From a virus, in the IMG/VR virus record IMGVR_UViG_3300029263_000579, positions 1 to 27,053 of that record: 27,053 nt of DNA; one strand, given 5' to 3'. This document shows, one piece after another, positions 5,732 through 24,887 of this stretch; positions within the stretch are counted from its first letter, which is position 1, and each line of letters starts with the position of its first letter. A program made the position numbers and the translations under genes. The notes under the pieces are model-generated. The model was given only the letters and a program-made list of their open reading frames with translations, was not told the origin of the DNA and made no database searches.

Positions 5732-8700
5732 ATGCGTCGAGAATTCAATCCAACTTTACGGGCTGCTTCGTCTCGTAAGGCTGTTAAAAAAACAATAGAA
5801 GATATAGTCGTCGATCTCACTCTTATGGAGGGGGATTCGACGACTTTGTATTATAGTGGAAGTCCTTTGATGCAAACGGGTGTGGTTGGCGATCCGAACA
5901 ATCAAGATATAATAGCAGGTGATGATGTGCCGAAGCCATCCGCCGTGTTTCCCGTTCTCGCTATTGGTCTTGCTACTGATGATGCAACAACAGACTCAGG
6001 AGATCCATCAATAAGACCTCCAGTTGGAGGATCTATCAAATACAATCAGGACGCTCCAAATAGGCCTTGTGTATTTTTCGATCTTAGTTCAATTCCTAGT
6101 GACGCTATCATAGAAGAAGCAACTTTAGAATTAGAATTAATGGAAGAAACCGACCCGACGCATAATTTATTTCTTAGTCTGTTCGACGGTCCCGGCCGAT
6201 CGCCGTTGCCACAGGAACTTCCTGAAAACGTATGGCCTGATTCGTTAACTCTTGAGGCTTTAAATTTAAGTCGTCACGCTACTCCTAATGCTACTTGGAA
6301 TTATTATGATAGTAGTATTAACAATAGCAATAGATGGAAAAGTATTCCCGCCGAAGAAGGAACTTTTCTTCCCAATCCAATTGGTATGATGCAAAATACA
6401 AGAAGAAGTGATTACCCAGAACCTTCAGAGAGTTATGATGAACAGAGGATTGATCCGAGTAGCGACAGTTTCCCCACCGAATCCTATGGTCATATTGGAT
6501 ATGGTATAGACGGTGGTGGTTTCGTTGAAAATTACCCGCATACGTCTGAGGATCTGGTAGTAGAGGATAGTGACTCCACATTTGTGTTTGATGTCACCGA
6601 TCAGGTTCAATATGGATATGACACCAACAATAAAAAATGTAACCTGATTGTTCGTGCTACCAATCAGGGACCAAATTTGGCGGCTGCTTCTCCAGACGCT
6701 CAAGTTGAAATTGAACCAGTGAAGTTAGATTCTGTTCATATATCAGATACACCAACTGGTGCTGTGCTTGACCCCCCTGAAGAAGAACAAGAACAAACAG
6801 TACATTGCGTTCTCGAAGGTCTAGAAAATGCCACAGAACCTGTAACATATCAGTGGTGGAAAGAATCTGCTGCCTTGGAACCATTTGGTGAGTTAGATGT
6901 CACTCCGGCTGGGAACGTGAAAGAAAACGGCGTCGGCCTTGTGGCGGTATCTAATGCAATATCTGTTGGTGGTGATCCACCAACAAACGTACTTCAGTTT
7001 GATTGGATTACTATATCGCCTGGAGGCGTCCAAACGACGCAACAAATTTCCAGTTCCACCCCAATTCGAGATGATGTACTTGACTCCTACAGTATCCCCG
7101 GAGATTTAGGAAATCATAATTTAAAATGTGTTATTACAATTTCCAATCCAGAACTAGAGTTCGACGAGATGGATATCATTGACTTCGGCACGATCAGTTT
7201 TGATTTAGAGGGAGTTTTAACTGTTACTGTCACGACTGGTCCGGATGCTCTCGAAGAAGTGGTAAATGGAAATAGATTGCAAGTCACATCGACGGTTACT
7301 GGTGTAGTTGCACCTACGTTCGATTATGAATTTGCTAAAGATGGCACCATAATTGATTCGCAATCGGATGTGAGTGATTTAAATTCTGGTCTCTACGATA
7401 TTATTTTACCCCCAGATGTGCCTGGGAATGGTATTTATAGTATTACCACTGTTTTAAAAGAGGGTGGAATTCAGGTTGATGATAAAACATTAACGTGGAG
7501 TTATGATGTTGAAGCAGTACCTCCTGTTTCTTGGGTTGAGGTTCCTGAATATAGAAGTGGAGTGTACAAATTAAAGGACACTCCTACTTCTCCCCCACTT
7601 CTTACACAACCTAACAGATGGGATGACTCGGTCTCAGAGCCTTGTCTTGATTTTCCAAGCGATATTCAGTTTTCTCCTGACTTTAATGTAGATCTGGAGG
7701 TAATTGAGGTTTCTAAATGTGCAGGTGATGGTAGTTTCAGTGGTAAACCATACCTCCTAAACAATACTAATACTACTATTGCATTCTTGGCTCCCAACGG
7801 CGCCCAGTCGAACGGGGCCACTCCCTGCCCGCAAGGACTGAATCAGTTTGGTGTAGCATTAGACAGATATCCTCGGCTCATCGAGGGAGAAGATATTCCA
7901 ATTACCGTATTCTCCAAGTTTGGATTTGGCGGAGAATGGGAAGCCGGTAGCGGGCCGGATGGAAATGGATTAACACGACCCACGGACATGGCAGTATGGT
8001 CAGCCAATGGGGGTTGGAGATATTATGTTGCGTACAGTTATTTGTGTAAATTGGTTCCTATTACTGTGTGTCTTACTGGAAATATACAAGCCTTAAATAA
8101 CCCATCCCAACTTAATGATATTTCTCTCGCCGATACGGAATATAGCAACACATTGGGTGATGTAAATAGGGAATTGAATACTTGTAGTAGTACGTTTGGC
8201 AATGATGCAAGCTCTACAGTTACAGGATGGTTACAGATCGCTGGGCCTCCTTTACCAACCGAAGGTACAGATCTAGGAGAAACATGGTTCTTCCATTTCC
8301 GAGATGGTTGGTCTGCTGGAAGACTTGGCGAAAAAGGAAAGTTTGAACCAACTGATATTGATTCATCTCTTCACTTTACTGGAGGAATACCACGCCCAAC
8401 TGAAGAAATGCTTACTAGTTGGCCAAATCCGTCTGATTTTATGACTGAGACTGGTGGTACGCCAAGCGGACAAAGCTTAGCCATGATACCAGAAGCAAAT
8501 CCTTTACTGTGGAATCCTCAATCTGGATTTGATCTAACGTACCCATCTCATATAGTACATGCTCGACTCGGTATTGATCCGGAATCACCAAATACCTTTA
8601 ATGGAGATCCATGTGCTGGTGTTCCCACTCCACTATTAGTTAGAGAGTCTCAACTAACTAAAAATGAATCTCTTTATGGGTATATGAAATTAGGTGATGA

Positions 8701-9277
8701 TTTCAGCCACGAGGCAAATCCTTCTAACGCAAACCATTATGGACCAGGATCTGTATCACCGTTAATTTGTGGTACATATATGGCCGTGTGCGTTGAACCC
8801 GATCAGGAGTCTCCTGATAATACGGACTACTTTGATCGATTCGGTAATCCGTTACCACCCGATGACCGCGAGTCGTTGGCGTTTCATAAATGGGTGATCG
8901 ATCATCCCGATTATCAATACATTGTCGAAGTTTATAGAACTGATGTTTTGGGCGTTAGGAATCTGCACGGTATAATATGCAGCAACAGTAGCAAGGCATT
9001 CCGAGCTGATATTACTGTTGAGAACGAAACCCAATTTCCTAGAAGTATATACTGGCAATGGAGCAGTAATAAGTTCTTAAGTTCTGCTTTCTATAAAGCA
9101 GGTGACGAATTGATAGTGTACATGTTTAATGATAGTAGTGAGTTGACGAATGCCATTACACAGGCTAAAGTAAAGTATGTGGGTGCATTCTCTGGAATTA
9201 ATGATAATGGATCTAACCTAGTCACATTCAATGAGACTTCAGCAATAAACATAGGAATTCCTGATATACCTACTTGA
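5732..9277 (+). CDS. large virion/adhesin protein with DNRLRE-like and Ig-like domains, 1181 aa
   Basis: The start is set by a GGAGA ribosome site. After a basic N-terminus (about 1-30) comes a DNRLRE-like beta-sandwich: NRPCVFFDLSSIPSDAIIEEA near 110-130, TWNYYDSS near 190, and FVFDVTDQVQYGYDTNN near 285-300, which match the FDLSSIP, TWN and DVT-x-x-VQ marks of that family. At least two Ig-like segments follow, one around 350-400 with VTYQWWKES and one around 500-600 with YEFAKDG. The remaining half is Gly/Pro/Asn-rich with no assigned domain. Such proteins usually sit on the virion surface, as fibres, whiskers or capsid decorations, and bind glycans. It lies alone on the + strand among small genes, far from the other structural genes. 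Its stop codon is part of the next promoter. Confidence 0.8.
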   Translation: MRREFNPTLRAASSRKAVKKTIEDIVVDLTLMEGDSTTLYYSGSPLMQTGVVGDPNNQDIIAGDDVPKPSAVFPVLAIGLATDDATTDSGDPSIRPPVGGSIKYNQDAPNRPCVFFDLSSIPSDAIIEEATLELELMEETDPTHNLFLSLFDGPGRSPLPQELPENVWPDSLTLEALNLSRHATPNATWNYYDSSINNSNRWKSIPAEEGTFLPNPIGMMQNTRRSDYPEPSESYDEQRIDPSSDSFPTESYGHIGYGIDGGGFVENYPHTSEDLVVEDSDSTFVFDVTDQVQYGYDTNNKKCNLIVRATNQGPNLAAASPDAQVEIEPVKLDSVHISDTPTGAVLDPPEEEQEQTVHCVLEGLENATEPVTYQWWKESAALEPFGELDVTPAGNVKENGVGLVAVSNAISVGGDPPTNVLQFDWITISPGGVQTTQQISSSTPIRDDVLDSYSIPGDLGNHNLKCVITISNPELEFDEMDIIDFGTISFDLEGVLTVTVTTGPDALEEVVNGNRLQVTSTVTGVVAPTFDYEFAKDGTIIDSQSDVSDLNSGLYDIILPPDVPGNGIYSITTVLKEGGIQVDDKTLTWSYDVEAVPPVSWVEVPEYRSGVYKLKDTPTSPPLLTQPNRWDDSVSEPCLDFPSDIQFSPDFNVDLEVIEVSKCAGDGSFSGKPYLLNNTNTTIAFLAPNGAQSNGATPCPQGLNQFGVALDRYPRLIEGEDIPITVFSKFGFGGEWEAGSGPDGNGLTRPTDMAVWSANGGWRYYVAYSYLCKLVPITVCLTGNIQALNNPSQLNDISLADTEYSNTLGDVNRELNTCSSTFGNDASSTVTGWLQIAGPPLPTEGTDLGETWFFHFRDGWSAGRLGEKGKFEPTDIDSSLHFTGGIPRPTEEMLTSWPNPSDFMTETGGTPSGQSLAMIPEANPLLWNPQSGFDLTYPSHIVHARLGIDPESPNTFNGDPCAGVPTPLLVRESQLTKNESLYGYMKLGDDFSHEANPSNANHYGPGSVSPLICGTYMAVCVEPDQESPDNTDYFDRFGNPLPPDDRESLAFHKWVIDHPDYQYIVEVYRTDVLGVRNLHGIICSNSSKAFRADITVENETQFPRSIYWQWSSNKFLSSAFYKAGDELIVYMFNDSSELTNAITQAKVKYVGAFSGINDNGSNLVTFNETSAINIGIPDIPT

Positions 9278-11861: not shown

Positions 11862-11889
11862 GGGGGGAGGAATTGCAATTCCTCCCCCC
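11862..11889 (+). repeat. 28-bp perfect palindrome (14-bp arms)
   Basis: GGGGGGAGGAATTG is followed at once by its exact reverse complement. As RNA it would form a hairpin of at least 11 pairs. There is no T run after it, so it is not a standard terminator. It lies between the HTH gene stop and tRNA-Gly (six bases before the tRNA), so it could block 3'-exonucleases, guide tRNA 5' processing, or be a protein-binding site. Confidence 0.85.
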
Positions 11890-11970: not shown

Positions 11971-12570
11971 ATGAAGAATTTTACGATCTATCGTATTGGT
12001 AAAAAAGATGCAAAAGATTTACTTCTTGAATACCATTACTTGAAGGATCATTCCCGTGGATTTAAGAGTGGATATAACTATGGACTCTTTCGAGACGAAA
12101 CAATTTCATCAGAAGGACTTCTTGGGGTATGCATTTTCACAGGATTACCAGTTCCCGAATTGGCACAATCAGCATTCGGGTTACAACGTAATCAGCAGGA
12201 CGGACTTTTCGAACTTAGCAGGTTGTGTCTGCACCCATCCGTCCAAGGAAGTGAAAAAAATCTGGCGTCATGGTTCGTTTCAAGATGTCTGCGAAGGTTG
12301 CGAAAAACAACTATGGTTAGAGCGGTGTTAAGTTATGCTGATGCAGATTACCATGAAGGTACGATCTACAAAGCATCAAATTTTAATTACTATGGTTTGT
12401 CCGATTCAAAGAAAGATTTCTGGATCAAACAAGAAGATGGATCATTCTTAAAGCATAGTAGAGGTAAGATGAGCGGACTCGACGGAGAGTGGCGCCAACG
12501 AAGTAGAAAACACAGATACCTTATGGTCTACGATAAGACTTTGAAGGTACTCTGGAACAAGGAGAACTAA
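11971..12570 (+). CDS. Mom-like DNA-modifying acyltransferase, 199 aa
   Basis: The central block FELSRLCLHP (80-89), then ASWFVSRCLRRLRK (99-112), followed by SYADADYHEGTIYKASNF (121-138) and a C-terminal KHRYLMVYDK (180-189), matches the phage Mu Mom-like family of GNAT-fold proteins. Mom converts adenine in phage DNA to a carbamoylmethyl form that resists host restriction enzymes. The S-Y-A-D...H-x-G-T-I-Y-x-A-S-N-x-x-Y-x-G motif is the strongest mark. The start is forced by position: the ATG is two bases after tRNA-Gly and no other Met occurs for about 100 residues. There is no Shine-Dalgarno, so processing of the tRNA 3' end would leave an almost leaderless message. It is coupled to the next membrane gene with one base between. 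Confidence 0.75.
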   Translation: MKNFTIYRIGKKDAKDLLLEYHYLKDHSRGFKSGYNYGLFRDETISSEGLLGVCIFTGLPVPELAQSAFGLQRNQQDGLFELSRLCLHPSVQGSEKNLASWFVSRCLRRLRKTTMVRAVLSYADADYHEGTIYKASNFNYYGLSDSKKDFWIKQEDGSFLKHSRGKMSGLDGEWRQRSRKHRYLMVYDKTLKVLWNKEN

Positions 12571-16230: not shown

Positions 16231-18720
16231 CTAGTCTGGTCTTTCTTCGTAGCGTAATTTAATATTACTTGGAATATCACCGTCTATTACGATGGTGATA
16301 TTTCCGTCTACTTCCCCATCAGAAGTTATAGTGAAGTCGTTGATGCTTCCTGCCGATGAAGTAAATTCATCTCGGATATCATCCATATACTCAACATCTA
16401 AATCTCTATAACTTATAGGCACATACGTCGCGGTGTCTAAATTTAGACTAGGATTACTCCAGTCCGCTATCACCTTTTTAGAATTGAATTTTACTTCTAT
16501 TTCGTCGTTAGTTTCCCAATTGTTTAACCAACTGGTAGATTCATTGGTGTACACTGCTACTACGAAATTCTCTTTAGTATCTAGATCGGCACCATTAGAA
16601 TCTTTAGAGATACGCTTCATGAAAGAAGATGAGGGGAAGTTCTTAAATTCATTTTTTGTTTTATTTCTTACTCCGATACCATCGAATGTATCTTTCCATC
16701 TTTCCATCGAATGATTAGGGGTGGATCCACCCGACCCACTCATTCTTAAAATTTCATCAGTCTGACTGATATCAAAGAATATAGCATCAACTGGACTTCC
16801 CGAATTTACATAGTTGTTTACCATAAAACCTTGGTCGTTGTCTGTAAATTCACGGTATAGGGTTTCTCCCGAGTATGCTGGTATTACGATGTCTGTACAC
16901 GAAACTGAACCCGTAAAATCATAATCACCTAAACCTGATCTTGATCCTGCGTCGGATAGATTCAGGGTAAAGGTTATTGAATCTGGATTATTTTGCTCTT
17001 TTAATTGCCACCCATACCCATCAGGTTCTATGTAATATTTTGCGGAGACTCTATTCCAACTGGGATCGGTTACTCCATTTCCATCATAGTCACGATTGTC
17101 TGCCTCCCACCAGTTACCAGACTCCAGACTAGAGTCTGTTATGCTGTGACCTAATGTTATGTGATTACTTCCGAGATCGTTTTCCTCACTGAGATCTGCT
17201 GCATATAAGCATGGGGGTCTATGGACGCATGATAATGGATATTCAATTCCCCGTTGACCTTGAGAAATCGGACCAGACACAATATCATATTTCATATTAA
17301 AGAATGCTTTACCTTCTGCATCTGGAAATCCGTTGCCGGCTTGGTGGAATAATGATATTGATGCTCCGTTGAATTTAAATCTATTCAGGAATCTATATGC
17401 TTTTCTCCACGGAGTTACTCTCTTTTCTTTATCTGGGCCTTCTACTGTAACAAAAGTGGTACTCAATTCGATAGCATTAAAACCTGTTGCTTTAGGACCA
17501 TCCATTATCCCTGTGTGCCACTGTCCCCAGTTAGGTTGCCTTATCCCACCCAACCCAGCGAGGATAGAGTTTCCGTTGTCATCTCCGAAAAAATAATTCT
17601 TTGGATCGTTTTCTAAATCGCCAATCCATTGGTTGAGTGGTTGAACTCCGTTGTTCGAAAAATGATGATACCCAAAAGTACTATTGGATGTGTCAGTACT
17701 GAATTTAAATATTTTATTGGTAGCATCTCGATCCGGATCGGTTACATTAGATGTATTGTCCGGTGCTGGTATTCTATATCTAATTCTTAATTTCGGACGC
17801 ATGGATACGTTTTTAATATCGTAGTTTATTGGAGTTACGTCTTCGGAGAGAGGAGTGCCATCTACACTTATAACCTCAGTATGTCCTGATATAGATTCAT
17901 CTGGGTTAGTTAATTCGACGTATCTACCAACTTGAAAAATTCTGTCTGCATTTGATCCGGCAGGTTGTGAACCCGGCTTCTGGAGTTTTATATATTGACC
18001 TTCTTCGGCAAATTTACCAGTAGCAGTAGATGATACTAACCAATCTGATTCTATTTCATCTTCGGTAATTTGGTGTTCGAATGGTAACCATTGTATAGTA
18101 CCGCCTTCGACAAACGTGTTGTTAGTCGTGAAAGGGACATCGGTACTTAGTATTAATCGAAAATTACTTACTGTTATACTGTACTTATCAGAATCATCGA
18201 TAATTGTAAGTGGACCTGGGTCGTCTACGTCTACGAATGAAGTTTCGACAAAATATCTAGAGTTGCTGACATCTTGGTTTATACTACTTTCATCTAGGAT
18301 AGTACCGAAATCTAAATAATCAGTTATATTTCTTTCGAATAATCTTTGAAGAGAATCTTTATACAATTCGAATTTGGCTTGATCATCCGTATTTACCGGT
18401 GGTTTCATGATTTCAATTTGAATACTGTTATCATTAACTTTATACCTGAATATAGTGGTTGTGTCACTATATGTCGTCACATTTGACGTTAAATCATCAG
18501 GCCAAGTTTTTATAGAGGCTTCAATAGATGACGGTGGTAACTGTGTGTTTACCTTTGTCCCTAATTCAATATTAAACCCCAAGTTCACTTGGGCCGAAGT
18601 AGAGTGTAACAACTTAATCGCTGTTGGATATGTGTTACTATAATTTCGACTTGTGGCAGTTCCCCACGGATACCATTCACCGTAGTTTTCCGAATCATAA
18701 ACTTTATCAATCAGGGGCAT
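16231..18720 (-). CDS. large virion/fibre-type protein, 829 aa
   Basis: The gene starts three bases after the stop of the 756-aa gene, with an AGGATAT ribosome site, so the two form an operon. The protein is acidic, Asn/Ser/Thr/Asp-rich and beta-type throughout, with no signal peptide or coiled coil. It begins MPLIDKVYDSENYGEWYPWG. The middle contains a W-rich segment (NQWIGDLENDPKNYFFGDD, then GIRQPNWGQWHTGIMDG). The end is ITIVIDGDIPSNIKLRYEERP. Composition, length and operon position fit a virion protein such as a fibre, whisker or large head/tail decoration, but I cannot name a family. Confidence 0.7.
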   Translation of the reverse strand: MPLIDKVYDSENYGEWYPWGTATSRNYSNTYPTAIKLLHSTSAQVNLGFNIELGTKVNTQLPPSSIEASIKTWPDDLTSNVTTYSDTTTIFRYKVNDNSIQIEIMKPPVNTDDQAKFELYKDSLQRLFERNITDYLDFGTILDESSINQDVSNSRYFVETSFVDVDDPGPLTIIDDSDKYSITVSNFRLILSTDVPFTTNNTFVEGGTIQWLPFEHQITEDEIESDWLVSSTATGKFAEEGQYIKLQKPGSQPAGSNADRIFQVGRYVELTNPDESISGHTEVISVDGTPLSEDVTPINYDIKNVSMRPKLRIRYRIPAPDNTSNVTDPDRDATNKIFKFSTDTSNSTFGYHHFSNNGVQPLNQWIGDLENDPKNYFFGDDNGNSILAGLGGIRQPNWGQWHTGIMDGPKATGFNAIELSTTFVTVEGPDKEKRVTPWRKAYRFLNRFKFNGASISLFHQAGNGFPDAEGKAFFNMKYDIVSGPISQGQRGIEYPLSCVHRPPCLYAADLSEENDLGSNHITLGHSITDSSLESGNWWEADNRDYDGNGVTDPSWNRVSAKYYIEPDGYGWQLKEQNNPDSITFTLNLSDAGSRSGLGDYDFTGSVSCTDIVIPAYSGETLYREFTDNDQGFMVNNYVNSGSPVDAIFFDISQTDEILRMSGSGGSTPNHSMERWKDTFDGIGVRNKTKNEFKNFPSSSFMKRISKDSNGADLDTKENFVVAVYTNESTSWLNNWETNDEIEVKFNSKKVIADWSNPSLNLDTATYVPISYRDLDVEYMDDIRDEFTSSAGSINDFTITSDGEVDGNITIVIDGDIPSNIKLRYEERPD

Positions 18721-18723
18721 ATA

Positions 18724-20994
18724 TCAATATCCTATTACATAAACATTCATGTTGACTAGACCAGTTTCGCATATAAGTCCTATTGTATCAGTGAACTGTT
18801 GTTCTATGAACAAATCTTCTCCGGGATTTAACATGTAACCGCTTGACACAGTTACATCTGTACCACCCACATACACGGGACCAGATGCATCTTGATGTAG
18901 TTTAATTCTAATTCCCGAATTAAACGCTGTTGTGTTTGCTGTACCAGTACCATGAGCCAGTTGCATCTCCTCAGTAACAACAACTCGATAAGTTAGTACG
19001 CTGGATGGAGCCGAAACAGAAACTGGAACGGTTGCTGGAACTACACCGTTAACATAAGCCGATACCATTGAATCGAGACTGCTGTTGGTGGTGGTTATGT
19101 TGCTATTTAGAGTTCCTAATTCGGTGTTAGTTGCAGTGAACGTCGCATCCTGCAACGTTATTGCAAGACTAACACCTGCAAGTGCATTGTGCAGAGCAGT
19201 GATTCCACCAGAGAGTCCTTCTAGTTCGTGCTTGAACTCAAAGGTTACGCCGATTGGGGCATCAAGTCCATTTCCGGTGGTGTAACCCTGAACCATGATG
19301 GGCCACGCACTTGTCGATCCAGCAGTACCCGACACATATATTGCCGTAGCATCTGTAGTTGCACCATGAACTGGAATTGCTGCGTTTGCTGCATTTGCAA
19401 CCGTGGTGTTGGCATCAACTGTAGCACTGAATGATACTGCGTCAGTGTTGACTAAGTTAACATTAAGAGCGCCACCAGAGATTCCAACTGGTACAATCGC
19501 TTCGTTTCCTATTGAATTTGGAGCAGATACTCCGACTAGGAGACTATTTACATACGGAGAGTTGTGTGCGGTTACTCCTGCTCCTACGACGGTTTGGATT
19601 CCTGACTGATCCCATGTTACACCTAGTTCATGTCCGCCTTTGCCCGTGGTTCCTATGATGGAGACTGGGAACAGGGTAAGTCCATCATTTCTTCCTTGAA
19701 CTTGTAGAGCAGTTACATTGGTGATACCAGAACCCTCGACACGAACATGGAGAAGTTCAGTTGTTATACCACTTACCTGTTCTTTACCTATGGTCACACC
19801 TAACGGTCTTGGATGTGATGTAGCAACACCACCATATAAAATTGCAGGCATTGCAGATAGTCCTGCTGGACCACTGAATCCCATAGCGGTAATTTTATCG
19901 GCGGAGTTCAACGCTCGAATATCTAGATCCGTGGAGGTAACAGCAATAGATGCGTTGGTTATATTGGCGTCTATCTCTGAAGTTGCATCCCATGTAATTC
20001 CTAATGTGGCACCAGTGGATATGGGGAATATAGTTCCGTCATCGAAAGTTATACCGATAGTTACACCATTTGCAACAGTAGCAAGGTTTATATCTGTGTC
20101 GGTTATGGTAGCACTAACGGTTCCGTTAGCGAATGAAACTTTAAGTTCATCTCCAGAAATTCCTACTGGATATTGATTTCCGTCTCCTGATATACCCGTT
20201 AAGTGAACCGCTACTGGATAGGCGTTTGTTACACCTTGAACTATAACTGTGTCGGTGCTTGCAGCAACGTGCATCGCTGTGCTACCGTGAACACCCATAG
20301 ACAGTCCACGAATATCCAAATCAGTGTTCGTTATGTTGGCATCTAATTGTGTTCCAGCGTCCCATGTTACACCCAAAGTACCAGTGGTAATTGGGAATGT
20401 GGTTGCAGTGTCAAAAGTTATTCCAAGAGTGACACCACTGGCTACAATATTGGCACTTACTTCACCAGTAACACCTACAATATCACCACTATAGGTTCCG
20501 CCACCTGCGGTGTAGGTGGCCGTCAACCCTCTAATGTCAAAGTCAATTGCAGAAACTTCAACAGCAGTCATTCCTCCGTATCCAGAGACATATAATACAT
20601 CGGCAGACTTACCACTTCCCTTGACGGTTACAGTATCAGTGATCGTTACTTCACCAGTAACACCTACAATGTCGCCACTATAGGTTCCACCGCCGGCGGT
20701 ATACTCCGCAGTGAGTCCTCTGACTCCAAGATCAGTAGTTACGCTAATGGAAGAAGTTTTTAGATTTACATCAAGTGCATTACTAGTAGATGTTATCGCA
20801 CTGCCGCCAATGTATAATTGAACAGGAAGGTGAGTTCCTGTAGCAGCACTAACGGGAGTTGCGGTTCCGTCTGCTCCCCATGCAACCTTCATGTACTGAT
20901 AGTGTGCGGATGTGCTGCCAGCAGTAACAAAGTCTGTAGCAATTCTTTCCGCAGTCGATCCTTCAATTATGAGTACGCTATCGTCAACAGCCAT
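18724..20994 (-). CDS. repeat-bearing virion protein, 756 aa
   Basis: The start lies behind a CGGAGAG site. The N-terminus SVLIIEGSTAERIATDFVTAG, then MKVAWGADGTATPVSA, resembles phage virion proteins that open with an A-W-G-x-DGT-x-x-x-V element. The long middle is built from beta repeats of the type LD[IV]RGL...YTAGGGTYSGDIVGVTGEV (two clear copies) and V-T-[LI]-G-I-T-[FW]-D...[FL]-[PD]-I-[TS]-T-G. This suggests an extended beta-helical or fibrous shaft. The C-terminus (LNPGEDLFIEQQFTDTIGLIC, then NVYVIGY) looks like the terminal beta-sandwich of a head- or tail-surface protein. It shares an operon with the 829-aa protein and is likely a late gene. No precise T4 counterpart is seen. Confidence 0.7.
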   Translation of the reverse strand: MAVDDSVLIIEGSTAERIATDFVTAGSTSAHYQYMKVAWGADGTATPVSAATGTHLPVQLYIGGSAITSTSNALDVNLKTSSISVTTDLGVRGLTAEYTAGGGTYSGDIVGVTGEVTITDTVTVKGSGKSADVLYVSGYGGMTAVEVSAIDFDIRGLTATYTAGGGTYSGDIVGVTGEVSANIVASGVTLGITFDTATTFPITTGTLGVTWDAGTQLDANITNTDLDIRGLSMGVHGSTAMHVAASTDTVIVQGVTNAYPVAVHLTGISGDGNQYPVGISGDELKVSFANGTVSATITDTDINLATVANGVTIGITFDDGTIFPISTGATLGITWDATSEIDANITNASIAVTSTDLDIRALNSADKITAMGFSGPAGLSAMPAILYGGVATSHPRPLGVTIGKEQVSGITTELLHVRVEGSGITNVTALQVQGRNDGLTLFPVSIIGTTGKGGHELGVTWDQSGIQTVVGAGVTAHNSPYVNSLLVGVSAPNSIGNEAIVPVGISGGALNVNLVNTDAVSFSATVDANTTVANAANAAIPVHGATTDATAIYVSGTAGSTSAWPIMVQGYTTGNGLDAPIGVTFEFKHELEGLSGGITALHNALAGVSLAITLQDATFTATNTELGTLNSNITTTNSSLDSMVSAYVNGVVPATVPVSVSAPSSVLTYRVVVTEEMQLAHGTGTANTTAFNSGIRIKLHQDASGPVYVGGTDVTVSSGYMLNPGEDLFIEQQFTDTIGLICETGLVNMNVYVIGY
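20454..20728 (-). repeat. two diverged direct repeats of about 85 bp inside the 756-aa gene
   Basis: Segments at about 20454-20540 and 20645-20728 are closely similar (both contain TTCACCAGTAACACCTACAA, then TC[AG]CCACTATAGGTTCC). They encode two copies of the YTAGGGTYSGDIVGVTGEV module. This suggests growth of a fibrous shaft by internal duplication. Confidence 0.75.
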
Positions 20995-22294: not shown

Positions 22295-22320
22295 AATCTT
22301 TTTAAAGCGTTAGAGCGAGA

Positions 22321-22353
22321 GGAGAGTGGGTTTATCCCACTCTCCTTTTTTTT
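22321..22353 (+). terminator. strong terminator after gene 32
   Basis: A perfect 10-bp stem GGAGAGTGGG/CCCACTCTCC with a 5-nt loop is followed by eight T. It ends one base into the stop codon of the convergent tape-measure gene. On the minus strand no T run follows, so it works mainly for gene 32. Confidence 0.92.
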
Positions 22354-24019
22354 AACTTGCATTCCTACCGCTGCGGCCAGGAATAGAACCCGCGGGTTGT
22401 TGATCGTATGAAGATCTTCGTAATTCTTCAGTGCTAGAAGGTCTAGTTTCTAACTCTCTAGTTGGTAGAGACGCTTCTTGATTTGTTTGGGGAGATTGTT
22501 GATTGATTATAGTTACCTGACCAGGACTTTCTCGATTGGTGGTCGCACGATCGCCTGGTTGCATTTCATATGATTCAAACTCTGAATTCGACATAGTTCT
22601 GGACATAGAAGGAGTAGAAGTCACAGGTCCCATATCCATTGATGGGTTTACCATCTCTTCTGGTAAATCAACTAAATCACTGGTCAGCGAACCTATTCTA
22701 TATTCTTTAGCAGGTATTAAACTATCACCACCACCGACATGCTCTTGCCCAATTAACTCTCTATGTTTTCCTGCAAGTTCTGAGAAGGATGAGGCACTTA
22801 TTTTTCTCATACCACTTACTGGATTTTCAAAAGTAGAAGTCATCATTCCCCCTATAAACTCTTGTTCTGTGATTGCAGACTCTCCTCCTGATACCCTTCC
22901 TTTATTCACTTCTTCAAATACACCCGATGCTTCATTTTCATAAAAATCTGCCATCTGTTTGTGGTATTGATTTCCCGACATACCATTGAATAATTCCATC
23001 AGGTTGTTTCTTTGTTTCATCTTAAACTCTGGACTTCCTTCTTTATATCCAAGGGCATTCATCGTATCTTGACTGTGACGATTTGTTTCGTCTGCTGCAT
23101 CAAGGCCGTAGAATAATCCTTCAGATGCCACTAAGAATGGAAGTCCCCAAGGAGATTTGAAGAGCATTCTGGCTGTTCCCCTCATCAATGCCCGTGATCC
23201 TGTCTTTACGTTTCTGGCTACGTTCATGGTTCGAGCAGAGTTTGCAAAAGATGTTCCAAACTGTGATGTTGCTGCACCTACACCTCTGACCTGATTCATC
23301 ATTCTCTGTATAGGATTGATAGATCTGAATGCGTTAGCACCTAATGAACCTGTCGTTTGTGTTGATATTCTTCCAACACCAAGAGATAACTCTCTTGCAA
23401 GTTTAGCTTCTCGAACCATATTTGGTAGTCTACTGACAAAACTTGTAAGTGATTTTCCTGTTGCTGCCATTAACTGTGTAAAACTTTTAGTTCCATCTAT
23501 GTACGGTTTTAATCCAACTCCCATTGGTAAAAATGCTCTAAATGGGCTTAGTATTCTGGCTAAAATTCCACTGCCACGGCCAACGGCGAGGGCGCCTTTG
23601 CCAACGGCGAGGGCGCCTAGGGCACTAGTAATTGGATTTCTTTTAATAATGCCAGGAAGAAAAGAATCAGTACTACCGTCAGGATCACCGTCAGGACTGG
23701 TAGTAGGATTGTTAGCACCACCCAAACCAACTGCACCACCAACTGCACCACCACCAAGACTACCGACTATTCCCTTTCTTCTTCTCTCTAAATCTTCTTC
23801 TCGTCTCTCTGATCGTGTGGTTTTGTCCACATCATCTGATCCTAGAATAACGGTCTTGGGGTTGTATATGTTTATTACTGATTTTTTAATTTCTCTCGAC
23901 ACTTCAAATTTATTGGTGTCTGCTAAAATTACATCACGGGTGTCATCATTTAAACCTTGGGTAGAAGATTTAGATGAAGAACTTTGTGCAGAGATTATTG
24001 ATTCTAGTAATGTTGGCAT
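22352..24019 (-). CDS. candidate tail tape-measure protein, 555 aa
   Basis: It starts in a TAATG overlap with the gp51-like frame, directly downstream of the tail-chaperone-like genes, the usual place of the tape measure. The length is close to that of T4 gp29 (590 aa), which sets a tail of about 100 nm. The sequence has a charged N-terminal helix (RSERREEDLERRRKG, about 68-82) and Gly/Ala-rich hydrophobic stretches (SLGGGAVGGAVGLGG; ITSALGALAVGKGALAVGRGSGI). Further helical segments follow, then a disordered Q/S/T/P-rich C-terminus. The hydrophobic segments fit the membrane-interacting parts of tape measures. Direct similarity to gp29 is not evident by eye, so the call rests on context and composition. 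Confidence 0.6.
   Translation of the reverse strand: MPTLLESIISAQSSSSKSSTQGLNDDTRDVILADTNKFEVSREIKKSVINIYNPKTVILGSDDVDKTTRSERREEDLERRRKGIVGSLGGGAVGGAVGLGGANNPTTSPDGDPDGSTDSFLPGIIKRNPITSALGALAVGKGALAVGRGSGILARILSPFRAFLPMGVGLKPYIDGTKSFTQLMAATGKSLTSFVSRLPNMVREAKLARELSLGVGRISTQTTGSLGANAFRSINPIQRMMNQVRGVGAATSQFGTSFANSARTMNVARNVKTGSRALMRGTARMLFKSPWGLPFLVASEGLFYGLDAADETNRHSQDTMNALGYKEGSPEFKMKQRNNLMELFNGMSGNQYHKQMADFYENEASGVFEEVNKGRVSGGESAITEQEFIGGMMTSTFENPVSGMRKISASSFSELAGKHRELIGQEHVGGGDSLIPAKEYRIGSLTSDLVDLPEEMVNPSMDMGPVTSTPSMSRTMSNSEFESYEMQPGDRATTNRESPGQVTIINQQSPQTNQEASLPTRELETRPSSTEELRRSSYDQQPAGSIPGRSGRNAS
23581..23619 (-). repeat. 21-bp period tandem repeat in the tape-measure candidate
   Basis: Two identical 18-bp blocks (CCAACGGCGAGGGCGCCT) lie 21 bp apart. 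They are much richer in G+C than their surroundings and encode two copies of a GALAVG[KR] heptad. This is probably a recent in-frame duplication. Confidence 0.8.
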
Positions 24020-24192
24020 TAAGATTTATTTTCTTTTTCTTTTGTAATTTCACTTAAAATCATATCAATATAAAGTTTCTTTTCCCAAGGATATAATGAA
24101 TCTAATTCTGATAACGAATATTTGTGCCAGTACATCAGTTCGTGATTCGTTTTATAATAGTCATAAAGACTGGTATGACTATTAATCAGGTA
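24019..24192 (-). CDS. 51: gp51-like frame, expressed as -1 frameshift extension of gp26
   Basis: This 57-codon frame (YLINSHTSLYDYYKTNHELM, then YWHKYSLSELDSLYPWEKKLYIDMIL, then KENKS) begins at the gp26 slippery run in the -1 frame and ends in a TAATG overlap with the tape-measure gene. The only internal ATG is about 20 codons in and would cut the helix that carries YDYYKTNHELM. The S-L-x-[ED]-L-[DE]-x-[LM]-x-P-[WF]-E-[RK]-x-[IL]-Y pattern agrees with gp51-type proteins and with the C-terminal T regions of tail-assembly chaperones. T4 gp51 is needed for baseplate hub assembly. The product would be a gp26-gp51 fusion of about 289 residues. Confidence 0.7.
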   Translation of the reverse strand, partial: YLINSHTSLYDYYKTNHELMYWHKYSLSELDSLYPWEKKLYIDMILSEITKEKENKS

Positions 24193-24199
24193 AAAAAAT
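24155..24199 (-). promoter_or_regulatory. -1 ribosomal frameshift signal (slippery U7 plus hairpin)
   Basis: Read on the minus strand, seven T (24198 down to 24192) in codons GAT TTT TTT form a T-TTT-TTT slippery heptamer three codons before the gp26 stop. Eight bases later a perfect 10-bp stem TAATAGTCAT/ATGACTATTA (24184-24175 with 24164-24155) closes a 10-nt loop. The spacing and stem match known -1 frameshift stimulators. Confidence 0.75.
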
Positions 24200-24887
24200 C
24201 GACTAGATTGTCCAGTTCTCTTTTTATTTGTTTATTACAATGAGGGCATTTATAATTTATGTCGATGACATTTTTTGGTAATTTACCTATATATCCTTCA
24301 GCTATTTTTTTAGCATCTTCAATACTCAAGTCATCTACAAATTTGTTCTTTTCGTCGTCTGTATAATCAGAGAAAACATATACGTTTTCTTTATCAAATA
24401 CAGACTCTATTGCTGAAACGATAGAATTAGTCAACAGATCTTGTTCTGATATTAGGTTATCGTTTATGGAAGACATGGTTGGTGGTTTTAATTGTAAACC
24501 ATAGTCCTCGTTGAGTCGAACCACACTCTCTATCGTTATGTCACTAATTTCTTTCATGTTTTCTAGATTTATCTCTATATCGGTTTTCTCTTCGCAATAC
24601 GGACAACTCAGTGCAGTTTTTGTGGTTTCTCCTACCGACTTTGATCTAATGGAAACCATTAATTTTTCCAGATCAGTAATAGGTAAATCTTTAACAATAA
24701 TATCGTCAAAAATGCATGACTGACATGATCGTAATATTGTCTCCATTACTTCTTTATGTTCTCTTGACTGAACAGCCATCAATAATACTTTTTCTTCTTT
24801 TACTGTGTATGCTCGATATTTGATTGTCTTGTTTATACCAGACAGTTTTACGCTATACGTCGGTATTTCAATTTTTGGTAAACTCAT
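24186..24887 (-). CDS. 26: gp26-like baseplate hub / tail-chaperone protein, 233 aa
   Basis: The start follows a GGAGAAATT ribosome site. The sequence fits the T4 base plate (gp26) family: IPTYSVKLSGINKTIKYRAYTVKEEKVLL at residues 8-36, and LEKLMVSIRSKSVGE in the middle. Two zinc-type CxxC pairs, LSCPYCEEKTDI and YKCPHCNKQI, are spaced far apart. In T4 gp26 belongs to baseplate hub assembly. The gene lies between the tube-like gene and the tape measure and carries a frameshift site at its end, so the short form (233 aa) and the gp26-gp51 fusion would both be made. This is the two-product arrangement of tail-assembly chaperones in lambda-like and P2-like phages. Confidence 0.8.
   Translation of the reverse strand: MSLPKIEIPTYSVKLSGINKTIKYRAYTVKEEKVLLMAVQSREHKEVMETILRSCQSCIFDDIIVKDLPITDLEKLMVSIRSKSVGETTKTALSCPYCEEKTDIEINLENMKEISDITIESVVRLNEDYGLQLKPPTMSSINDNLISEQDLLTNSIVSAIESVFDKENVYVFSDYTDDEKNKFVDDLSIEDAKKIAEGYIGKLPKNVIDINYKCPHCNKQIKRELDNLVDFFT

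What the first reader, a model, noticed from the sequence alone, without database searches (positions are those of the whole stretch)
24019..24887. Complete -1 frameshift cassette fusing gp26 to gp51 in front of the tape measure
Seen directly: a T-TTT-TTT slippery run three codons before the gp26 stop; an 8-nt spacer; a perfect 10-bp hairpin with a 10-nt loop; and a -1 frame that stays open for 57 codons with gp51-like sequence and no start codon near its beginning. Many tailed phages make two tail-assembly chaperones by frameshifting just upstream of the tape-measure gene (lambda G/GT, P2 E/E+E'). I know of no established frameshift for T4 genes 26/51. If real, this recasts gp26/gp51 of this T4-like group as a G/GT-type chaperone pair rather than separate hub parts.
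Basis: partly seen in the sequence, partly recalled or inferred. Interest (0 to 1): 0.9.

Follow-up and report, generated by a model that had tools for sequence, protein, structure and literature searches.

The report
Frameshift-made phage tail-assembly chaperone pair
A marine T4-like virus makes a short and a long version of one tail-building helper protein by having some ribosomes slip back one base near the end of the gene; the signal is real and very widely conserved, but this trick was already reported for T4-like phages in 2022.

Summary
On the minus strand, gp26 (24887..24186) ends GAT TTT TTT ACC TGA. The slippery heptamer T TTT TTT is at 24198..24192. A perfect 10-bp hairpin follows after 7 nt. 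The -1 frame stays open for 59 codons and encodes the gp51 domain (PHROG 634, E 1e-15), with no ATG/GTG/TTG before its codon 21. In 214 gp26 genes from relatives, 211 have T TTT TTN in frame just before the stop; only 11 of 1,048 control ORFs do. Where located, the gp51 domain is in the -1 frame. Where no start codon exists, the stretch before the first possible start still evolves as -1-frame protein (third-position excess, P about 5e-14). This leaves little room for anything but -1 frameshifting. Complete phage genomes with the signal carry one copy of the family; T4 lacks the signal and carries two, gp26 (short) and gp51 (long). That is the tail-assembly-chaperone scheme published by Vladimirov, Gautam and Davidson (Virology 2022). 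Added here: a new lineage, breadth, selection tests, and evidence that the stimulator differs between lineages (upstream Shine-Dalgarno-like site or downstream hairpin).

The parts
24186..24887 (-). gp26 / TAC-N: short chaperone form, 233 aa, ATG at 24887, TGA 24188..24186; carries two CxxC pairs (C95/C98, C214/C217; zinc-ribbon-like)
   Evidence: PF12322 E 1e-46; PHROG 150 E 1e-48; AlphaFold2 pLDDT 91.8
24192..24198 (-). slippery heptamer T TTT TTT (codons GAT TTT TTT)
   Evidence: sequence; T TTT TTN in 211 of 214 relatives against 11 of 1,048 control ORFs
24155..24184 (-). downstream hairpin, perfect 10-bp stem, 7 nt after the slip site; probable frameshift stimulator
   Evidence: -10.8 kcal/mol; 91-nt region z = -2.65; 1.3% in synonymous null; kept in some of the nearest relatives, partly with compensating changes
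24022..24198 (-). -1 frame coding stretch (gp51 / TAC-C domain), 59 codons FFYLINSHTSLYDYYK...; no ATG/GTG/TTG before codon 21; stop TAA 24021..24019
   Evidence: PHROG 634 E 1e-15; 57 homologous -1 stretches align from the FF; AlphaFold2 four helices, pLDDT 87.7
24022..24887 (-). predicted long form gp26-gp51 / TAC-NC, about 290 aa, junction ...ELDNLVDFFYLINSHTSLYDYYK...
   Evidence: inferred from slip site plus -1 frame; comparative tests
22352..24019 (-). 555-aa ORF, putative tape measure protein; its ATG overlaps the gp51 stop (TAATG)
   Evidence: position and size; no significant family match; equivalent ORFs in phiM12 and Cr30 match tape-measure PHROGs

Best explanation
This is a tail assembly chaperone gene with a programmed -1 ribosomal frameshift. 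Most ribosomes finish gp26 at the TGA and make the short form (TAC-N). A fraction, probably paused by the hairpin 7 nt downstream, slip back one base on T TTT TTT and read on in the -1 frame, adding a helical gp51 domain of about 57 residues to give the long form (TAC-NC). By analogy with lambda G/GT, the two forms together coat or load the tape measure protein, encoded immediately downstream, during baseplate-hub and tail-tube assembly, and are not kept in the virion. Shown here: the signal, its conservation, the -1 coding constraint, single-copy status, homology of both T4 proteins. Inferred: shift efficiency, that the hairpin stimulates it, the chaperone role, and that the 555-aa ORF is the tape measure.
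For: Signal and open -1 frame. 211/214 relatives with in-frame T TTT TTN against 1.05% of control ORFs. In 170 non-redundant junctions the first Phe codon is always TTT and the codon before always ends in T, although TTC makes up 27% of Phe codons in gp26. The gp51 motif is in the -1 frame wherever it is detected (190 loci -1 alone, 1 also in another frame, 15 without motif, 8 cut). In 41 of 170 a -1-frame stop sits directly before the slip, so that frame can be entered only there. In 72 of 173 junctions no ATG/GTG/TTG precedes codon 20, yet codons 5-19 show third-position excess 61/37/130 in 25 disjoint pairs, P 5e-14. One PF12322 copy in each of 7 complete relatives' genomes, two in T4. T4 gp51 is a whole gp26-like protein plus the gp51 domain. 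A T4 review lists both as hub assembly chaperones, gp51 absent from virions (PMC3004832).
Against: No protein or ribosome-profiling data. Fold match of gp26 to a known chaperone (HK97, 2ob9) is weak: probability 0.33-0.38, E 1.3-1.5. The 555-aa ORF shows no homology to known tape measures. The hairpin is kept only in part of the nearest relatives.
Confidence: 0.93

Rival explanations
1. gp51 is a separate gene started by its own codon (re-initiation after the gp26 stop); the slip run is incidental.
For: Public records annotate gp51 as its own CDS, and several cyanophages have an ATG five codons into the -1 frame.
Against: In the window the first start codon is codon 21, inside the conserved domain. 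In 72 of 173 junctions no start precedes codon 20, yet that stretch is under -1 coding constraint. It would not explain 211/214 slip sites.
Confidence: 0.03
2. Transcriptional slippage: RNA polymerase adds or drops a U on the T run and normal ribosomes read the altered mRNA.
For: The window has seven T in a row.
Against: About half of the 170 junctions are TTTTTTC, six T only, which is short for slippage (general knowledge); the codon phase (T TTT TTN) fits tandem tRNA slippage; the downstream hairpin and the upstream Shine-Dalgarno-like site exceed synonymous expectation over the set.
Confidence: 0.03
3. Assembly error: a lost T in the run breaks a normal in-frame fusion gene.
For: Homopolymers are error-prone in some platforms.
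Against: Another contig has the same gp26 to 100% (L002); 211 relatives have the same phase, half of them without a 7-T run; none was found with an in-frame fusion at this place.
Confidence: 0.01

Closest known systems
[quoted passage not shown] paper not held, known from its title, two citing papers and memory)
   Same: Same genes (26/51 family), same short and long forms, poly-T slip sites in part of the T4-like phages, two separate genes in the T4 group.
   Different: This window is a new uncultured lineage; the downstream hairpin and the start-codon-free constraint test are added here. I could not read whether that paper covers this lineage.
Phage lambda G/GT and P2 E/E+E' frameshift pairs (own knowledge)
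   Same: Short and long chaperone from one gene by -1 shift just upstream of the tape measure gene.
   Different: No sequence relation was tested or claimed; the slip site here is T TTT TTT; gp26 is larger (233 aa) and has zinc-ribbon-like CxxC pairs in this lineage.
E. coli dnaX frameshift signal (own knowledge)
   Same: Slip heptamer with an upstream Shine-Dalgarno-like site about 10 nt away and/or a downstream hairpin. Many relatives have GGAGG exactly 10 nt upstream (27 of 170).
   Different: The window has the hairpin but no upstream GGAGG; here the shift lengthens the product instead of shortening it.
T4 gp26 and gp51
   Same: Both match PF12322 over full length; gp51 adds the same C-terminal domain.
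   Different: T4 uses two genes on opposite strands and no slip site (GAG TTC TTT GAG).

Membership tests
[quoted passage not shown]
   T TTT TTT one codon before the stop; 211/214 relatives
G/GT-type tail assembly chaperone with -1 frameshift (TAC-N/TAC-NC) | -1 frame open past the stop and encoding a conserved C-terminal domain | tested here: met
   59 codons, PHROG 634 E 1e-15; 55-82 codons in 166 complete relatives; -1 coding constraint
G/GT-type tail assembly chaperone with -1 frameshift (TAC-N/TAC-NC) | gene lies directly upstream of the tape measure gene | tested here: inconclusive
   555-aa ORF overlaps the gp51 stop; in 94 of 121 loci an ORF of 300 aa or more starts within 20 nt; no homology of the window's ORF to known tape measures, but phiM12 and Cr30 equivalents match tape-measure PHROGs
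G/GT-type tail assembly chaperone with -1 frameshift (TAC-N/TAC-NC) | fold of known tail assembly chaperones | tested here: inconclusive
   HK97 chaperone 2ob9 among the highest-probability PDB matches but only 0.33-0.38, E 1.3-1.5
G/GT-type tail assembly chaperone with -1 frameshift (TAC-N/TAC-NC) | both forms are made, bind the tape measure and are absent from the virion | not testable with these tools
   needs proteomics, binding assays and virion analysis
T4 gp26/gp51 family (PF12322) | sequence match above the curated cut-off | tested here: met
   E 1e-46, 159.8 bits against 24.5
T4-type two-gene arrangement (separate short and long genes) | two PF12322 genes in the genome | tested here: not met
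   one copy in the 68.8-kb contig with the identical gp26 (a fragment) and in each of seven complete relatives; two in T4

The most novel reading that the evidence does not exclude
Across T4-like phages outside the T4 group the T TTT TTY core is fixed while the stimulator is exchangeable: many lineages use a Shine-Dalgarno-like site 9-10 nt upstream (dnaX-like), and this window's lineage lacks it and relies on a downstream hairpin. The ratio of short to long chaperone would then be re-tuned by swapping stimulators rather than by changing the slip site.
Probability: 0.4. Interest if true: 0.4.

Novelty: new member of a known kind. Interest (0 to 1): 0.3.

Why it matters
Gp26 and gp51 are annotated almost everywhere as baseplate hub parts or as two separate genes. 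The evidence here says that in hundreds of marine and other T4-like phages they are two products of one frameshifting chaperone gene, and that T4 reaches the same two products by carrying two homologous genes. It corrects annotation of abundant ocean viruses and supports treating T4's hub proteins 26 and 51 as tape-measure chaperones. The scheme itself was already published.

Tried and rejected
Separate gp51 start: rejected by coding constraint upstream of any start codon. Assembly error: rejected by 211 relatives and another identical contig. T4-like second gene elsewhere: one family copy per genome in the relatives checked. Proving the 555-aa ORF is a tape measure: iterated profile search reached only 16-18 near relatives and none of the reference tape measures; left as inferred. 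Anti-correlation of Shine-Dalgarno strength and hairpin strength: no clear sign (Spearman 0.13, P 0.08). Fold of the gp51 domain: no significant viral match. Solved structures by sequence: none. The key prior paper is not in the library.

Full report
WHAT IS IN THE SEQUENCE. The window is a 27-kb uncultured virus record. On its minus strand gp26 runs from 24887 to 24186 and matches Pfam T4_baseplate (PF12322, E 1e-46) and PHROG 150. Its end reads GAT TTT TTT ACC TGA. The heptamer T TTT TTT lies at 24198..24192. After 7 nt comes a perfect 10-bp hairpin (24184..24155). The -1 frame is open from the slip to TAA at 24021..24019, 59 codons, and this stretch matches PHROG 634, baseplate hub assembly catalyst = gp51, with E 1e-15. 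Its first ATG, GTG or TTG is codon 21, inside the conserved domain. The stop overlaps the ATG of a 555-aa ORF (TAATG).

CONSERVATION OF THE SLIP SITE. Related gp26 genes were collected from viral contigs through gp26, gp4 and gp32 and from phage records. In a first set all 91 junctions had in-frame T TTT TTN. In the larger set 211 of 214 had it (102 TTTTTTT, 101 TTTTTTC, 8 TTTTTTA). The exceptions were T4, Salmonella phage Det7, and one contig with an early stop inside gp26. Among 1,048 other ORFs of at least 150 aa in the same loci only 11 have such a run in their last 24 codons. In 170 junctions less than 85% alike, the first Phe codon is always TTT and the codon before it always ends in T, although TTC makes up 27% of Phe codons elsewhere in gp26. 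These rows are related by descent, so the raw probabilities (about 1e-23 and 1e-26) overstate the case, but the contrast with the control ORFs does not depend on them.

THE -1 FRAME IS TRANSLATED FROM UPSTREAM. Wherever the gp51 motif could be located it was in the -1 frame (190 loci -1 alone, 1 with a second frame, 15 without the motif, 8 cut short). In 41 of 170 junctions a -1-frame stop stands directly before the heptamer, so that frame can be entered only at the slip. Fifty-eight gp51 stretches align from the two Phe onward. In 72 of 173 junctions no ATG, GTG or TTG occurs before codon 20. In that set, codons 5-19, which lie beyond the gp26 stop, changed 61, 37 and 130 times at positions 1, 2 and 3 in 25 disjoint pairs (P 5e-14). 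A stretch that evolves as protein and has no start codon must be reached by ribosomes coming from gp26.

STIMULATORS. Over the 170 junctions the 21 nt upstream pair with the anti-Shine-Dalgarno sequence better than synonymous reshuffling predicts (-6.4 against -4.8 kcal/mol). The core sits at a fixed place: GGAGG ends exactly 10 nt before the heptamer in 27 junctions, and GAAGG or AGAGG ends 9 nt before it in 34. Downstream hairpins are also stronger than the synonymous null, reaching its best 5% in 38% of junctions. The window lacks the upstream site (rank 0.76) but has the strong hairpin (-10.8 kcal/mol, none of 20 reshufflings as good). Its nearest relatives keep the stem in part: 67% of cells paired against 28-41% when the partner is slid, and one pair with changes on both sides. 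Given the encoded protein, such a perfect stem arises by chance in 1.3% of reshufflings. The hairpin is therefore a probable, lineage-specific stimulator, not a proven one.

T4 AND OTHER GROUPS. Vibrio phage nt-1 and Aeromonas phage Aeh1, both Straboviridae, have GAT TTT TTC and the -1 gp51 domain. T4 has no slip site. Its gp26 (208 aa) and gp51 (249 aa) lie on opposite strands and both match PF12322 end to end (E 9e-64 and 4e-52); gp51 carries the gp51 domain after the gp26-like part. Seven complete genomes, six with the T TTT TTY signal and Det7 with a variant site, have one PF12322 gene each, and T4 has two. The short and long forms are thus made by frameshift in most groups and by two genes in T4. 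Ackermannviridae (Det7, phiMAM1) and the similar phage Madison, Pseudomonas phage Cygsa01 and Vibrio phage VPALA keep gp51 in the -1 frame but show N NTT TTC instead of T TTT TTY, which resembles the T7 gene 10 site (own knowledge). ACP17, OLIVR6, Astolliot, phiM12 and HTVC008M have T TTT TTY.

FUNCTION. In T4, gp26 and gp51 are listed as hub assembly chaperones, and gp51 is required but absent from virions (PMC3004832). The gp26 model is confident (pLDDT 91.8). The HK97 tail assembly chaperone 2ob9 is among its highest-probability PDB matches, but weakly (0.33-0.38, E 1.3-1.5). The gp51 domain is predicted as four helices. An ORF of 300 aa or more follows gp51 within 20 nt in 94 of 121 loci, median length 574 aa. 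The equivalent ORFs of phiM12 and Cr30 match tape-measure PHROGs; the window's own ORF matches nothing significant. The tape-measure identity is inferred.

WHAT IS KNOWN. [quoted passage not shown] the paper is not held. PMC10885494 cites it for T4-like phages that carry one short gene and one fused gene. PMC12846349 cites it for poly-T slip sites in TAC-N genes of T4-like phages. From memory, its abstract says frameshifting is conserved in several T4-like groups and that T4 uses separate genes 26 and 51. The present finding is therefore a new, well-supported member of a published scheme.

Noticed in passing
L096, L259, L260, L262, L266 (Det7, Madison, phiMAM1, Cygsa01, VPALA) at the gp26 stop: gp51 domain in the -1 frame but with N NTT TTC (ATT TTC, GTT TTC, CTT TTC) in place of T TTT TTY, a second slip-site class resembling T7 gene 10.
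   Followed up: partly
window 24186-24887 (-), residues C95/C98 and C214/C217: gp26 of this lineage has two CxxC pairs (zinc-ribbon-like, weak Pfam zinc-ribbon hits) that are absent in the P-SSM2, S-ShM2, S-SRM01 and Cr30 proteins.
   Followed up: no
window 22320-22346: Perfect 11-bp hairpin in the gap between the convergent gp32 (+) and 555-aa (-) ORFs, probably a two-way terminator.
   Followed up: no
window 11862-11889 and 11971-12570 (+): Perfect 12-bp hairpin about 80 nt upstream of a Mom-like DNA modification gene (PHROG 1384, E 2.6e-33).
   Followed up: no
window 16231-18720 (-), 18724-20994 (-), 5732-9277 (+): Three large ORFs (829, 756 and 1181 aa) with no PHROG match; the 756-aa one is built of GVTGEV/DIRGLTATYTAGGGTYSGDIV-like repeats.
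   Followed up: no
L011 (T4) genes 26 and 51: T4 gp26 keeps the FF motif but as GAG TTC TTT GAG, so the slip site is gone where a second, fused gene exists.
   Followed up: yes
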